Assembly: GCA_003554345.1 (NCBI GenBank)
Contig: PWGE01000129.1
Location: 1-6,336, forward strand
DNA length: 6,336 bases
Direction of reading: 5' to 3'
From: T1SED10-198M sp003554345 [NCBI: Candidatus Sumerlaeota bacterium]
GTDB lineage: Bacteria > Sumerlaeota > T1SED10-198M
Shown here: in pieces, positions 1-4,422 of the stretch
How the letters are laid out: every line of letters starts with the position of its first letter
Numbering within the stretch: position 1 is the first letter of the stretch
Made by a program: the position numbers and the translations under genes
The notes under the pieces: generated by a model
Databases searched by the model: none
What the model was told of the DNA's origin: nothing
The model's input: only the letters and a program-made list of their open reading frames with translations

Positions 1-55
1 ATCATGAAAATAGCACTCTTTTCTTGTAGTCTTAATCTGAAATCTTATCCTCTTC

Positions 56-169
56 ATCCTGTTCATCGATGCAAATTTTTCTGGGTTCTTATTCTTTCTG
101 GACTTATCTTGACTTCATCCCCGTATCATTGATGTAAAACATCTTTTCAGGGTTTTATTTTCAGAGGAG
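56..169 (+). repeat. Dispersed repeat, CATCGATG module, copy A
   Basis: The segment matches 4290-4386 along its length, except for about 17 extra bases near 84-100 that begin and end beside TTCTGG. It contains two related halves, one centred on CATCGATG (64-71) and the other on CATTGATG (127-134), each followed by an AAA/TTTTC stretch and CTGG or CAGGG, so the module itself probably arose by duplication. It ends in TATTTTCAGAGGAG (156-169), which is identical at four places in the window. I see no coding potential and no transposase nearby. Confidence 0.85.
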
Positions 170-233
170 AATAAACCTTGAAAAACACGAAAGAACACGA
201 ATAAAAGATACTATTCTGTTTTCCGGTGCTGAT
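170..233 (+). repeat. Dispersed repeat, CACGAA module, copy A
   Basis: These 64 bases follow directly on copy A of the CATCGATG module and match 4137-4200 at about 57 of 64 positions by hand alignment, without gaps. The core is a series of CACGAA words about 10 bases apart. In one forward frame the sequence from 196 reads HERTRIKDTILFSGAD, and the same frame of the other copy reads HEKHERTRKKDTILFPGSD. An SD-like AGAGGAG (163-169) stands 8 bases before a TTG at 178, but that frame ends at TAA (202-204) after eight codons, so it is a relic or a mini-ORF, not a gene. Confidence 0.85.
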
Positions 234-262
234 TTTCTGTCTTTCTGAAAGTTCACTCTAGC

Positions 263-298
263 GACTTTGCAATCTTTGTTATCTTTCGCGGTCTTTGC
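263..298. repeat. Degenerate 9-base tandem repeat, four units
   Basis: Four consecutive 9-base units can be read directly: GACTTTGCA, ATCTTTGTT, ATCTTTCGC and GGTCTTTGC. All share CTTT at the same phase. On the minus strand they read as GCAAAGACC, GCGAAAGAT, AACAAAGAT and TGCAAAGTC, which would encode a tripeptide pattern of the type AKT-AKD-NKD-CKV. A period divisible by three resembles the low-complexity K/D/H-rich leaders seen in intergenic repeat families of many environmental bacteria. No start codon and RBS support translation here. Confidence 0.7.
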
Positions 299-435
299 TT
301 TCTCTGCAATATCCTTTAATTTCTTTTCTTACAAAATATTCCTAAAAGTCCGCCTGTGGTGGGTTTGCGGGCTTGGCGAGCGTGCGTGATACATTCTTAT
401 TCCGGGGTTTGTTTGTCTTTATTCCCTGTCCTGAC

Positions 436-488
436 TATCCTGTAGATTGATGTAAAACCTCTTTTCCAGGGTTTTATTTTCAGAGGAG
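436..488 (+). repeat. Shortened CATCGATG module, copy C
   Basis: The segment begins TATCCTGTAGATTGATG, like the first half of the full module, then passes straight into the TAAAAC...CCAGGGTTTTATTTTCAGAGGAG ending of the second half. The central part of the full module is therefore missing, as expected from recombination between its two related halves. It ends in the 14-mer TATTTTCAGAGGAG (475-488). The sequence that follows (TGAAGGGATAAGGTGG) differs from the AATAAACC that follows copy A, but resembles 3946-3960. Confidence 0.8.
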
Positions 489-541
489 TGAAGGGATAAG
501 GTGGAAATAGTTTACAGTGCTCTCTACATACCGGGGGTATT

Positions 542-565
542 CCACAAAATTCACGAAAGAACCAT
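542..565 (+). repeat. Degenerate CACGAA repeat fragment
   Basis: CCACAAAATTCACGAAAGAAC aligns with the start of the CACGAA module at 4143 (CCACGAAAAACACGAAAGAAC), with three differences over about 21 bases. It lies about 30 bases beyond the purL stop and is separated from the nearest AGAGGAG junction (483-488) by about 53 unrelated bases. The match is short, so the call is tentative. Confidence 0.5.
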
Positions 566-594
566 AGTTGTCAGTCCAAAAGGAAACAACATTT

Positions 595-2808
595 TTACTG
601 TGCCACTGTATTTTCCAGTGCCTTCTCATAAAGAGATCGCATTTCTGCAAGGTGGAGAATATCATCTTCCCAGCAGATTGCCGGTTTTTCTGTCACTTTT
701 CCCAGGTACACCACCGGAACCTGAGCTTGATCAGCCTGTTCCAGAAAATCCTTTTCTTTATCCCTGCCGACACTTACCAGGAAAGAGCTCTGGATTTCCG
801 AAAAAAGAAATGCCGTTCGATTTTTAACAGAACAATCCGGCTGCAGAAGGGCACCCCATTCTTTCCCACTCCATAACAGCGACTCCAGGAGAGCTATCAT
901 AATGCCCCCTTCAGAAACATCATGAACACTTGAAAAAAGCTCTTTTCTGATGGCTCGCAGAATAAACTGCTGTGTTTTTCTTTCTTCCTGCAGATCAATC
1001 TCGGGACAGGGCCCTCTTTCTTCTCCGTTCAGTATTTTCAGGTATTGTGAGCCTCCCAGATTTTCTGAGGGTTTTCCGACCAGATAAATACCATCATTTT
1101 CTTTTTTAAAGAAAGCCGTCATATAGCGGGCCACATTTTCCAGTAAACCAACCATTCCTATAACGGGAGTAGGATATATGGCTTCTACTTTTCCCTCTGC
1201 ACTCCTGGTTTCATTATAGAGGCTGACATTACCCCCGGTGACCGGAGTTTCAAGAATTTGACAGGCCTGGCGCATTCCTTTTATCACTTCCTGAAATTGC
1301 CAGTATATTTCAGGATTTTCGGGGTTACCGAAGTTCAAGCAATTCGTTACTGCCAGGGGCTGAGCTCCTGCAGCCACACAATTCCGAGCAGCCTGAGCCA
1401 CCACAATCTTTCCCCCTTTTTCCGGGTCGAGATAACAATAATAGCCATTGGTATCAGTGGTCACCGACACCGCTTTATCAGAATCCTTCAAACGAAGGAG
1501 CGCGGCATCCTGTCCCGGGCGAACAACAGTATTCGTCTGAACCATATAATCATACTGTTCATAAATCCAGCGTTTCGAGGCAAAATGAGGATGAGCTACA
1601 AGGCGTTGAAGAGCGTCCTGCCAGCTCTCAAGAGAAACACCTTCATTATAAGTGGGCATCGTCTGTACATAAGCGGGTTTTTCAGCAGACACCTCACAGA
1701 CCGGAGCCCCTTCTGCCACATCATGGACCGGAATACAGGCTACTTCCTGCGATTTATGGTTCACTCTGAACAACTTATCGTCAGTCAGGTAACCTATTTT
1801 ACAGGGTTCAAGTTCCCATTTTTTGAGTATTCGATGCAACACATCTTCTTTACCTGCCTGGCAAACCGCCAGCATCCGTTCCTGAGACTCTGAAAGCATT
1901 ATTTCGTAGGAGGTCATATTTTTAGCGCGTTGCGGCACTTTATCCAGGTCGATAGTAATACCCAACCCGCCTTTTTCTGCCATTTCCGAAGCCGAGCATG
2001 TTAATCCTGCCGCCCCCATATCCTGAATAGAAACCAGACAACCGGAGGCAATCAGTTCCAGAGAGGCTTCCATGATGAGCTTTTCTGTAAAAGGATCTCC
2101 CACCTGCACGGAGGGACGTTTTTCTTCCTTATCCTCACCCAATTCTTCCGAGGCAAAGGTCGCCCCGTGAATGCCATCACGACCGGTGGGATTACCGAAA
2201 TAGTAGACAGGGTTTCCCGGTCCGGAAGCCCTGGCACTAATGATTTCCTCATGTCGGGCAAAACCCACACACATGGCATTTACCAGAGGATTCCCCTTAT
2301 ACTTGTTCATCGTTTGTAATTCACCACCTACGGTAGGCACACCAACGCAATTCCCGTAATGAGAAATTCCATTCACCACCCCTTTCAGGAGATAACGGGT
2401 TCGGGGATTATCAAGTTCACCAAAACTCAGTGAATCTAGAAGAGCGATGGGTCGAGCGCCCATGGTGAATATATCTCGCAGGATACCTCCCACGCCGGTA
2501 GCGGCTCCTTCAAATGGTTCGACCGCAGAAGGGTGGTTATGAGACTCGATCTTAAAAACCAGAGCCAACCCTTCTCCAATATCAACTGCACCGGCATTTT
2601 CACCAGGACCCTGCAGCACTCTTTCGCCTTCTACCGGCAGGGTGGCAAGCAGAGGGCGGGAGTGTTTATAACTGCAATGTTCACTCCACATAACAGAAAA
2701 AATGCCCAGTTCTGTTAAGGTTGGAGTGCGGTTTAGAATGCTTTTAATGGCGGCATATTCATTTTTTGTCAGCCCATGTTCAAGGGCAACCTCTTCTGTT
2801 ACCTGCAT
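595..2808 (-). CDS. purL: Phosphoribosylformylglycinamidine synthase subunit PurL
   Basis: This is the large, synthetase subunit of FGAM synthase. It converts FGAR, ATP and PurQ-derived ammonia to FGAM, ADP and phosphate in the fourth step of de novo purine synthesis in the cytoplasm. The 737 residues match the usual length of the small, multi-subunit form of PurL (about 740) rather than the roughly 1,300-residue single-chain enzyme. Visible family motifs are SEHCSYKHS (42-50), GPGENAG (67-73), ESHNHPS (88-94) followed by [12 protein letters not shown] (101-112), PTVGGEL (158-164), DPFTEK (238-243), the IQDMGAAGL region (261-269), LSESQERML (305-313), [10 protein letters not shown] (525-534) and VHDVSEGGI (628-636). 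This gives the two ATP-binding and two AIRS C-terminal domain halves in order, with no frameshift. The ATG start follows AAAGGAG (2814-2820) with a 5-base spacer. It lies 136 bases after purQ and may be read from the purSQ transcript or its own promoter. Confidence 0.98.
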
Positions 2809-2944
2809 TTTCGCTCCTTTTTTTCAAAGCATGAAATTAGGTATAATGGTAATTAAATCAGTTTATTTTTTTCTTCACATTCCATGAGAACCGGCAGTGT
2901 TATCTGTATTTTTTTAACAGGTATGCTAAGAAAATTCCTTTTTA
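2809..2944 (-). other. AT-rich purQ-purL spacer with purL ribosome binding site
   Basis: This 136-base gap separates purQ from purL. The strong Shine-Dalgarno AAAGGAG occupies 2814-2820. Upstream on the minus strand the sequence is AT-rich, with TTATAC at 2841-2846 as a possible -10 element, but I find no good -35 hexamer at the expected distance. No terminator-like GC-rich stem is present. A short CTGT/ACAG pair around an A-rich loop (near 2907-2923) is too weak to call. Read-through from purSQ and a separate purL promoter both remain possible. Confidence 0.5.
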
Positions 2945-3634
2945 TCATTTCAGGGATTGGTACAGAGACTTGAATAGAGCGAGCCCATCACAGCTATGAA
3001 GATAGGTATCAACAGCCCGTTCCGGATGAGGCATCATACCAAGGACATTACCCTGCTCATTGCATATGCCTGCAATATTATTCACTGAACCATTTGGATT
3101 AGCCTTTTCGGTCACATTCCCATCCTTATCCGAATAACGAAACAATACCTGTCCTTCTTCCTCAATTTTTTTCAGGGTTGCAGTATCAGCGTAATAATTT
3201 CCTTCATAATGAGCAATGGGAATATCCAGGGCAGCTCCTTTAGAAATAGCAGAGGTATAGATGGAATCATGGTGCTCTGCTTTTATAAAAACGTTACGAC
3301 AGATAAAACGAAGGGTGGTATTCTTCAAAAAAGCACCCGGCAAAAGACCGGATTCGAGCAGTATCTGAAACCCATTACAGATGCCCAATACCGGACCGCC
3401 CTTTTGCGCAAAACGTATCACTTCTTTCATAAGAGGAGAGAATCTTGCCAGAGCCCCGGTACGCAGGTAATCCCCATACGAAAAACCACCCGGTAAAACC
3501 ACCAGATCCGTTTTTTCAAGGGAGGAATCCCGATGCCATTGTAAAGCAACATCAAAACCCGCTTTTTCACGCAATGCCCATAAGCAGTCCTGGTCGCAAT
3601 TGGAACCGGGAAAAGTAATAATGACAGCTTTCAT
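2945..3634 (-). CDS. purQ: Phosphoribosylformylglycinamidine synthase subunit PurQ (glutaminase)
   Basis: This class I glutamine amidotransferase subunit of FGAM synthase hydrolyses glutamine and passes the ammonia to PurL. Its 229 residues are typical of stand-alone PurQ. The N-terminal [16 protein letters not shown] is characteristic, followed by the oxyanion-loop region [12 protein letters not shown] (47-58). The nucleophile C86 sits in GICNGFQ (84-90), and the triad is completed by H203 and E205 in MPHPER (201-206). The segment [13 protein letters not shown] (138-150) has Tyr143 where many homologues carry Gly (HGEG), a position known to vary. The ATG overlaps the purS stop by four bases (ATGA, 3631-3634), a sign of translational coupling and of roughly matched synthesis of the two subunits. 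Confidence 0.97.
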
Positions 3635-3873
3635 ATCTTTTCTTCAGTTAAAATTCGATATTCTTCAATGACAGGATTGGAAAGAACATCCCTGCAAACA
3701 GCTTCAATCTCTTCCTGGTTCATGTCCTCGGGCACTTCCAGCTCAAAGTATTTCCCACAACGAACAGACTGGATACTGGTATGACCGGTACTGTGCAGAG
3801 AATGAGTAATAACAGTCCCTTCAGGATCAGAAACCTCTTCTTTAAGTGTGACAATTACCGGTATTTTTTTCAT
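3631..3873 (-). CDS. purS: Phosphoribosylformylglycinamidine synthase subunit PurS
   Basis: This small accessory subunit of FGAM synthase bridges PurQ and PurL and is needed for ammonia transfer between them in the multi-subunit enzyme. At 80 residues it has the normal family length. The pattern is clear: a first strand VIVTLKEEVSDPEGT (6-20), then VRCGKYFELEV (37-47), an acidic helix, and the C-terminal CRDVLSNPVIEEYRI (60-74), which matches the usual C...LL-NPVIE-Y ending. The ATG at 3873 is preceded by GGGATGGG about 7-14 bases upstream, a modest RBS. It is the first gene of the pur block, and the 595-base gap in front of it should hold the promoter, though no clear hexamers or known PurR/Pur-box site are visible. 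Confidence 0.95.
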   Translation of the reverse strand: MKKIPVIVTLKEEVSDPEGTVITHSLHSTGHTSIQSVRCGKYFELEVPEDMNQEEIEAVCRDVLSNPVIEEYRILTEEKI

Positions 3874-3919
3874 TTCATGCCCATCCCAGATAAAATTGAA
3901 GACGCTTCATTTCACCATA

Positions 3920-3938
3920 TTTTGATAAAAAATCAAAA
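3920..3938. repeat. AT-rich inverted repeat upstream of purS
   Basis: TTTTGAT (3920-3926) and ATCAAAA (3932-3938) are perfect 7-bp complements around AAAAA. The repeat lies 46 bases upstream of the purS ATG. It could be an operator or a weak hairpin in the purS leader, but AT-rich palindromes of this size also arise by chance, and no regulator can be assigned. Confidence 0.4.
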
Positions 3939-3945
3939 AGAGGAG

Positions 3946-4120
3946 CAAAGGATAAGGGGGTTCTTTTGTCAGCACGAGTGCTTACGCCATCAGGCACGAA
4001 AATAAGATGCCGATACCGCCATAGGCAGACTGTAAGTTGGGAATCGGCGCTCCCGGCAAAGCGGCAATACAATAGTGAAGTGCAAAGTTTTTCAACCAAT
4101 GTGCATTCTATTTTGAAGAG
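3946..4120. other. GC-richer block of unknown nature between repeat modules
   Basis: This block contrasts in base composition with the AT-rich modules around it and lies between two AGAGGAG words (3939-3945 and 4130-4136). It contains AGCACGAGTGCT (3971-3982, 5-bp arms) and a longer inverted repeat, GCCGAT (4009-4014) against ATCGGC (4043-4048), which extends inward by CC/GG after one mismatch. Both strands are open: 96 codons on minus ending at 3875, and 77 codons on plus (3966-4199). Neither has a good RBS, a recognisable domain or conserved motif, and both run into the CACGAA repeat. It may be a non-coding repeat or structured RNA element. I do not recognise it. Confidence 0.45.
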
Positions 4121-4122
4121 TC

Positions 4123-4200
4123 TATTTTCAGAGGAGAATAAACCACGAAAAACACGAAAGAACACGAAAAAAAGATACTATTCTGTTTCCAGGATCTGAT
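4123..4200 (+). repeat. Dispersed repeat, junction 14-mer plus CACGAA module, copy B
   Basis: TATTTTCAGAGGAG (4123-4136) is followed by 64 bases matching 170-233 at about 57 positions. Over the 78 bases the two copies agree at about 71. CACGAA words start at 4144, 4153 and 4163. Here the sequence before the 14-mer is unrelated to the CATCGATG module, unlike copy A, which shows that the two modules are separable. One forward frame reads HEKHERTRKKDTILFPGSD, similar to leader peptides of GxxExxY-type ORFs, but no body of such a gene follows. Confidence 0.85.
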
Positions 4201-4295
4201 AACATTATCTTTTCTCTGGCATCCTCTTTCACCCTGTCAATCCTTGTTAAATCTCTTTTTCCGGATCTGATGAGATTATTTTTTTCTGATATCCT
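4190..4295 (+). repeat. Internal direct repeat, about 71-base period
   Basis: The 36 bases at 4190-4225 (beginning CAGGATCTGATAACATTATC) and the 35 bases at 4261-4295 (beginning CCGGATCTGATGAGATTATT) align with a few mismatches and one gap, both ending in ATCCT. This suggests a diverged tandem duplication within the repeat region. The copy A module shows a related but more diverged sequence (TTCCGGTGCTGATTTTC) at 221-237. Confidence 0.65.
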
Positions 4296-4386
4296 GTGCA
4301 TCGATGCAAATTTTCTGGATTTATCTTGATTTCATTCCCGTATCATCGATGTAAACATCTTTTCCAGGGTGCTATTTTCAGAGGAG
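4290..4386 (+). repeat. Dispersed repeat, CATCGATG module, copy B
   Basis: These 97 bases match 56-169, apart from 17 bases missing here. Both halves contain the perfect palindrome CATCGATG (4299-4306 and 4344-4351), and the module ends in TATTTTCAGAGGAG (4373-4386). After the junction comes TTCTCATGCTGATGTAAATATTC, which itself looks like a degenerate half-unit (GATGTAAA shared), so the array may continue for about 20 bases toward the deacetylase gene. Confidence 0.85.
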
Positions 4387-4422
4387 TTCTCATGCTGATG
4401 TAAATATTCGCACCACGAGGGG

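What the first reader, a model, noticed from the sequence alone, without database searches (positions are those of the whole stretch)
156..4386. Exact 14-mer TATTTTCAGAGGAG at four places acts as a module junction
The word occurs at 156-169, 475-488, 4123-4136 and 4373-4386, always on the plus strand and only in the two gaps. What precedes it is alike at three sites (CCAGGG-type CATCGATG module) and different at 4123. What follows falls into separate classes: AATAAACC plus CACGAA module (170, 4137), a GGATAAGG sequence (489; also after a shorter AGAGGAG at 3939-3945), and CATGCTGATGTAA (4387). Modules sharing a fixed border but swapping their continuation suggest a shuffling or targeted-insertion process, or a conserved SD-like translation signal within a repeat family.
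Basis: partly seen in the sequence, partly recalled or inferred. Interest (0 to 1): 0.6.

Follow-up and report, generated by a model that had tools for sequence, protein, structure and literature searches.

The report
Chained hairpin-headed repeats sharing one end
The repeated 14-letter word is the common right-hand end of a large family of short, probably mobile DNA pieces in an uncultured bacterium; new pieces start beside words that look like this end, so pieces string together in chains with changing neighbours.

Summary
It is a true border. Of 117 copies read, 112 usable left flanks form seven tail families plus seven singles. What follows is the hairpin head of another unit (57), an AATAWACCACGAA head (8), small classes (7) or unique DNA (45). 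A unit runs from a head (TTMYTCAYGC, compensated hairpin, GCCACC) to the 14-mer. 38 heads start in unrelated DNA, just after a TTTTCARRGGAG-like word (6.74 of 12 matches, control 3.16), while 23 of 28 such units still end in the exact 14-mer. So the element's end resembles its own target, which explains the chains. A translation-signal role is not supported: 6 of 60 chain ends have a start codon at the right spacing. On the reverse strand the head reads GTGG plus palindrome, like a REP element. I favour mobilisation by a single-strand (HUH) nuclease of REP/IS200 or IS91 type; this is inferred. No intact enzyme was found; one partial Y1 gene match exists. New variant of a known kind.

The parts
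1..169 (+). Unit A, cut by the contig edge just inside its head; T4 tail; ends in the 14-mer at 156-169
   Evidence: 14-mer; body equal to that of other T4 units read; tail family
170..488 (+). Unit B with H2 head (AATAAACCTTGAAAAACACGAA) and T4 tail; ends in the 14-mer at 475-488; followed by unique DNA
3961..4136 (+). Unit C with an eroded H1 head (TTCTTTTGTCAGCACGAGTGCTTACGCC) after AAGGGGG; T1 tail; ends in the 14-mer at 4123-4136
   Evidence: tail and 14-mer; head by eye, not called by the head profile
4137..4386 (+). Unit D with H2 head (AATAAACCACGAAAAACACGAA) and T4 tail; ends in the 14-mer at 4373-4386
4387..4419 (+). Probable eroded H1 head directly after unit D
   Evidence: by eye; not called by the profile

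Best explanation
The 14-mer is the right terminus of a family of short, directionally arranged, gene-free elements. Shown by sequence: a unit starts with a head (TTMYTCAYGC, 8-bp compensated hairpin, GCCACC), has one of several unrelated bodies and tails, and ends in TATTTTCAGAGGAG. Heads lie directly 3' of a TTTTCARRGGAG-like word, either in unrelated DNA or at the end of an earlier unit. Inferred: a single-strand (HUH) nuclease recognises the head hairpin, which on the reverse strand reads GTGG plus palindrome as in REP elements. It cuts beside the target-like word at the head side and at the next target-like word on the other side, and joins the piece to a new target-like word. Because the right end is itself target-like, units chain; because the far cut needs only such a word, different tails became attached to one kind of head.
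For: Seven tail families share only the 14-mer and each occurs before H1 and before unique DNA. 38 heads in unrelated DNA have a left word matching TTTTCAGAGGAG at 6.74 of 12 against 3.16 in windows further left, with a largest mean of 3.89 at any shift; strong and weak heads do not differ much (6.70, n=10; 6.20, n=15); 23 of 28 such units have an exact right end, so the two words are not a target duplication (first versions). Head hairpin: 342 of 408 cells paired and 82 changed on both sides over 51 distinct heads, 0 of 1000 shuffles as high. Among 16 pairs of units at least 95% identical outside the head, 11 have hairpins under 75% identical. CCAC follows the stem in 102 of 123 heads, that is GTGG before the palindrome on the other strand, the REP layout (passages of PMC8266576, and PMC3733652). 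Border variant GATAAG is followed by H2 in 12 of 12 and never by H1 or other DNA. 24 of 124 heads lie inside called ORFs although ORFs cover 83%. A Y1_Tnp match sits next to a unit and GTAG/GGAG palindromes.
Against: No intact enzyme: Y1_Tnp gave one match covering profile positions 44-121 of 121; Y2_Tnp gave none, but no control genome rang either. Clear right-end hairpins were seen only in tail T2 among the first five copies of each family (three of T7), whereas IS200/IS605 elements have hairpins at both ends. The target word is long and loose, not one tetranucleotide (9 of 38 read GGAG). No empty site was recognised. 19 heads have no end within 700 nt and 25 of 150 ends no head, three of the latter with tails that look cut at their 5' side. 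Strand bias against GC skew is weak: 24 of 71 contigs same sign at first, 30 of 79, p=0.042, in the larger set. H2 heads show no hairpin head and 29 of 34 follow a border.
Confidence: 0.45

Rival explanations
1. Inert repeats reshuffled by homologous recombination or gene conversion: the 14-mer and the conserved head flanks are short crossover points that swap tails and hairpins, without active insertion.
For: Hairpins and tails assort freely; shared words flank the swapped parts; no intact enzyme found.
Against: It does not explain why 38 heads in unrelated DNA sit beside a target-like word. 14 nt is short for homologous recombination (general knowledge).
Confidence: 0.25
2. Cassette-like site-specific recombination, as in integrons: circular units with one border recombine at border-like sites and stack in arrays read through a folded hairpin.
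For: Head-to-tail arrays with a repeated border; a hairpin conserved in structure more than in sequence.
Against: Many separate genomic sites rather than one array; no genes inside delimited units of 132-509 nt. The integron core word GTTRRRY (recalled) is not what follows the border. Integrase genes were not searched.
Confidence: 0.12
3. RNA-mediated insertion primed at a target that resembles the element's 3' end.
For: Constant 3' end; three ends with tails that look cut at their 5' side.
Against: No reverse transcriptase (RVT_1, 0 matches; 3 of 14 control genomes ring), though the draft is 87.7% complete. The target-like word lies at the 5' side of the unit.
Confidence: 0.07
4. A Shine-Dalgarno-carrying leader family: the 14-mer is kept because GAGGAG drives translation of the next gene.
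For: GAGGAG is SD-like. In a Chloroflexi draft genome 4 of 4 TTTTCAGAGGAG copies have an ATG within 10 nt after them.
Against: In the host genome 6 of 60 chain ends have a start codon at SD spacing, and the next feature is a gene end in 31 and a gene start in 25.
Confidence: 0.04

Closest known systems
REP palindromes with TnpA-REP / RAYT (GTAG- or GTGG-tagged; BIME, REPIN)
   Same: Tag directly 5' of a palindrome whose stem varies with compensation; many intergenic copies; a Y1-type gene remnant nearby
   Different: Here the palindrome heads units of 132-509 nt that end in a fixed 14-mer resembling the target; unrelated tails; head-to-tail chains
IS200/IS605 elements and their non-autonomous derivatives
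   Same: Target-like word beside the left end, an equivalent word at the inner right end, a hairpin near the end, no duplication
   Different: No transposase in the units, no common right-end hairpin, longer and looser target word
IS91 / IS801 family (one-ended transposition)
   Same: One constant end; the other end falls at words like the target, so different DNA is carried
   Different: No Y2 transposase found (test without a ringing control); different target word
Helitrons (eukaryotes)
   Same: Hairpin close to one end, stem exchangeable, read-through picks up neighbouring DNA
   Different: Bacterial host, other terminal words, gene-free units
Integron gene cassettes
   Same: Tandem units with a repeated border and a hairpin kept in structure
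   Different: No genes in the units, many separate sites, core word not matched from memory

Membership tests
REP (GTAG/GTGG-tagged palindromes) | Tetranucleotide tag directly 5' of a short palindrome | tested here: met
   CCAC directly after the stem on the top strand, i.e. GTGG before it on the other strand, in 102 of 123 heads. The tag is GTGG, not the usual GTAG
REP (GTAG/GTGG-tagged palindromes) | Palindrome kept by compensatory changes | tested here: met
   342 of 408 cells paired, 82 double changes, 0 of 1000 shuffles. On a hand-picked 37 rows the covariation score is 0.603 against 0.373, but the counts of pairs (37/500) and pair types (62/500) barely exceed shuffles
REP (GTAG/GTGG-tagged palindromes) | A cognate RAYT gene flanked by the same palindromes | tested here: inconclusive
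   One Y1_Tnp match (profile 44-121 of 121) near GTAG/GGAG palindromes and a unit, not shown to act on GTGG heads
IS200/IS605 | Target word beside the left end and equivalent word at the inner right end, no duplication | tested here: met
IS200/IS605 | Hairpins near both ends | tested here: not met
   Clear right-end hairpin only in T2 among the copies folded
IS200/IS605 | tnpA (Y1) gene in an autonomous copy | tested here: not met
   No unit with such a gene seen; one partial Y1_Tnp match in an 87.7% complete draft
IS91/IS801 | Y2 transposase | tested here: inconclusive
   PF04986: 0 matches, but no control genome rang
IS91/IS801 | Variable far end at target-like words | tested here: met
   Seven unrelated tails, all ending in a target-like word
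Integron cassettes | Integrase gene and attC core words | not tested
   Integrase genes were not searched; the core word was compared only from memory
Retroelement | Reverse transcriptase | tested here: not met
   PF00078: 0 matches in an incomplete draft, 3 of 14 controls ring

The most novel reading that the evidence does not exclude
A capture-and-chain system: a REP-like hairpin mobilises whatever DNA lies between it and the next TTTTCARRGGAG word, and because each captured piece ends in a copy of the target it becomes the landing site for the next. One short hairpin would have attached itself to at least seven unrelated sequences and built chains, while its own stem is exchanged as a block under selection for structure only. 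The same end word on an unrelated repeat in a Chloroflexi genome would mean that the rule spans phyla.
Probability: 0.27. Interest if true: 0.7.

Novelty: new variant of a known kind. Interest (0 to 1): 0.5.

Why it matters
Short intergenic repeats are common in bacteria, but how they pick up different neighbours and build mosaics is poorly understood. Here head, end word and target can be told apart within one genome, and the target resembles the element's own end. That gives a concrete rule (cut at the hairpin side and at the next target-like word) that can be tested with one enzyme and short single-stranded DNA. It also bears on why this draft is so broken: 126 of 274 marks lie within 400 nt of a contig end, a zone that is about 13% of the sequence read (many of these contigs were chosen for carrying marks).

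Tried and rejected
Shine-Dalgarno role: not supported. Target-site duplication: not supported, since right ends are exact while left words differ in 23 of 28 units (27 of 33 before cleaning). Decay of an inherited left copy: not favoured, since strong and weak heads have similar left words. Reverse transcriptase: no match. Hairpin inherited from the neighbouring unit: 4 of 28 adjacent pairs alike, 2.7 expected, 147 of 500 draws as high. Replication-strand bias: 24 of 71 contigs became 30 of 79, p=0.042; not used as evidence. Long autonomous units: two head-to-end spans over 520 nt, one of 2169 nt with two ORFs on the opposite strand and one of 5617 nt with four ORFs on both strands; I took them for unrelated genes between marks and did not follow them. 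Empty sites: 88 flanks searched by BLAST gave other repeat copies and two overlapping copies of the same loci; I recognised no clean empty site. Rfam: nothing at gathering level in the window. The 14-mer string is in no paper of the held library (one string search). Viral contigs: 0 matches to the border-plus-head pattern.

Selections to know: of 124 exact sites 117 were read with flanks, on 71 contigs. Contigs were mostly chosen because they carry the word or a unit hit; of the 40 fetched last, 8 were so chosen and 32 were arbitrary. In all 111 contigs and 671 kb of 2.55 Mb were read. Ends were called at up to 1 mismatch, so altered right ends are missed. Genes are ORFs of at least 90 aa, not a trained gene finder. 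In the target test, 5 of 43 heads proved to be mis-registered (2) or placed after a recognisable tail (3); one search drops them and is the figure used. Unit pairs are not independent and use 62 of 77 units. The alignment holds 37 of 51 distinct hairpin heads chosen by hand (14 left out), which raises the paired share (87.5%); all 51 give 342 of 408. In one search, 26 of 34 H2 hits follow a border within 3 mismatches, 3 more show it just inside the reported hit, and 5 do not.

Full report
Observation. The exact word TATTTTCAGAGGAG is at 156-169, 475-488, 4123-4136 and 4373-4386, all on the + strand. The window is contig 62 of a 2.55 Mb, 454-contig draft genome, 87.7% complete. That genome holds 124 exact copies (73 forward, 51 reverse) and none of the reversed control word; chance would give about 0.02 (my arithmetic). 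None of 40 other genomes searched (39 of the same phylum, 1 of the same domain) has the word. None of the 39 other genomes of the phylum has a relative of a T1 unit at E <= 0.001, and the head word GCGCCACCAATSATGAA is in the own genome only (1 of 41). The window's genes are purL, purQ, purS, a PIG-L family protein and a TPR protein, all on the minus strand.

Flanks. For 117 exact sites I clustered 60 nt on either side. The 112 usable left flanks form seven families (25, 24, 19, 15, 11, 7, 4) and 7 singles. Right flanks are H1 (57), H2 (8), three small classes (3, 2, 2) and 45 unique. Each of the seven tail families occurs both before H1 and before unique DNA.

Units. H1 is a head of about 40 nt: TTMYTCAYGC, a palindrome, GCCACC, AATSATGAA. 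On 111 contigs (671 kb) a profile finds 124 heads, 56 directly after an exact 14-mer, and there are 150 ends with at most one mismatch. 77 head-to-end units of 132-509 nt could be delimited; 19 heads had no end within 700 nt and 25 ends no head. Of 34 H2 hits, 29 follow a border or a variant of it (26 within 3 mismatches, 3 more by inspection) and 5 do not. The border variant GATAAG is followed by H2 in 12 of 12 cases; GAGGAG is followed by H1 54, by H2 13 and by other DNA 53 times. I read this as a composite whose inner end was lost and which was then copied whole; a single amplified lineage without any functional meaning fits equally well.

Where heads start. In a first set, 36 of 104 heads had four or more mismatches to the 14-mer on their left; their positions -11 to -1 read TTTTCA-RRGGAG, while -12 to -20 carry little information. 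In the larger set 43 heads qualified. On checking, 2 of these were mis-registered by one or two bases and 3 follow a recognisable tail. The remaining 38 match TTTTCAGAGGAG at 6.74 of 12, against 3.16 in windows 12-60 nt further left (largest mean at any shift 3.89). Heads with strong and weak profile scores are similar (6.70, n=10; 6.20, n=15), and 23 of 28 such units end in the exact 14-mer. The left word therefore behaves as a target and the right word as part of the element, without duplication. A unit's end is thus target-like, which accounts for chains and for the fixed border. 24 of 124 heads lie inside called ORFs although ORFs cover 83% of the sequence.

Head hairpin. Over 51 distinct heads with a 20-nt hairpin, 342 of 408 cells form standard pairs and 82 are changed on both sides; none of 1000 shuffles reaches either value. 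On 37 hand-picked rows the score is 0.603 against 0.373 in shuffles, while two coarser measures barely exceed them (37 and 62 of 500). The hairpin does not follow the rest of the unit: among 16 unit pairs at least 95% identical outside the head, 11 have hairpins under 75% identical and 2 identical ones, and hairpin types occur with many tail types. On the reverse strand the head is GTGG directly before the palindrome, then GTGAATAA and CTCCTC; CCAC stands after the stem in 102 of 123 heads. This is the layout of a REP element. The passages I saw describe a GTAG tag 5' of the palindrome, cleavage at CT, and cleavage at CC when the tag is changed to GTGG in one system (PMC8266576), and a family with mostly GTGG tags and stems with alternative complementary residues (PMC3733652). 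GTAG-tagged palindromes occur in this genome too, several inside T6-type units, and in five T1 tails the end of the border word is replaced by one. The one Y1_Tnp match covers profile positions 44-121 of 121 and lies downstream of a unit and next to such a palindrome; I take it for a remnant.

Function. The Shine-Dalgarno idea is not supported here: after the last border of 60 chains the next feature is a gene end in 31, a gene start in 25 and none in 4, and 6 have a start codon at SD spacing. In a Chloroflexi draft genome found by a longer pattern, however, all four TTTTCAGAGGAG copies have an ATG within 10 nt and end a different repeat. Of 14 places matching that repeat's tail there, 8 end in TTTTCA plus a varying word ending in GGAG. 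I do not know whether this is shared descent, convergence or a shared rule.

Mechanism. Shown: directional units, fixed ends, target-like word at the head side, no duplication, a head kept in structure, unrelated tails. Inferred: a HUH single-strand nuclease of REP/IS200 or IS91 type. The IS200/IS605 rule (target word beside the left end, equivalent word at the inner right end, hairpins near the ends; PMC6006769 passages) fits the top strand except for the missing common right-end hairpin. The IS91/IS801 rule (one essential end; the other at any sequence like ter, beginning with a target-like tetranucleotide; PMC3189936 passages; that the essential end abuts the target is recalled) and the Helitron rule (hairpin near the 3' end, stem exchange leaves about 90% activity, read-through carries flanking DNA; PMC4778049 passages) fit the bottom strand and best explain the changing tails. 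Against it: no intact enzyme, clear right-end hairpin only in T2, weak strand bias, no empty site recognised. I put this at 0.45 and recombination among inert repeats at 0.25.

Known or new. The parts are of known kinds (REP-like palindromes, non-autonomous elements, mosaics). I did not find described the combination of a fixed far end that resembles the target, unrelated tails and a freely exchanged hairpin. My literature searches were five, and I saw passages of five papers, none whole. Hence 'new variant of a known kind', interest 0.5.

Noticed in passing
L132 1513-1797 (contig 235) and L113 near 3383-3510 (contig 257): A Y1_Tnp (RAYT-like) match on contig 235, apparently lacking its N-terminal part, beside a GGAG/GTAG palindrome and downstream of a unit; the same upstream DNA recurs on contig 257, cut by the contig end.
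   Followed up: partly
e.g. L102 minus strand 2383-2470, L113 2903-2985, L116 minus strand 905-985: Doublets of GTAG-tagged palindromes (GTAGGGGCAAACC... and GTAGGGGCAGACC...) about 54 nt apart, between a T1 tail and a T6 tail.
   Followed up: partly
L153-L156, L197-L210 (Chloroflexi draft genome G041, JACQEA01): A different repeat (GGACACAGA...TCTGTGTTAATCAGTGTCC) ends in TATTTTCARRGGAG just before ATG codons; same end word in another phylum.
   Followed up: partly
window 486-510 and 3941-3965: Two similar words, GAGTGAAGGGATAAGGTGG and GAGCAAAGGATAAGGGGG, at the outer edge of both gaps; unexplained.
   Followed up: no
L176 1036-1316, L193 minus strand near 10079: Border-like words (TTTTTTCAGAGGAG, TATTTTCAGAGAAG) without a recognised unit; chance, targets or minimal remnants.
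   Followed up: no
L088 minus strand 1670, L108 minus strand 10927, L077 plus strand 1942: Ends whose tail seems cut at its 5' side by unrelated DNA, without a head.
   Followed up: no
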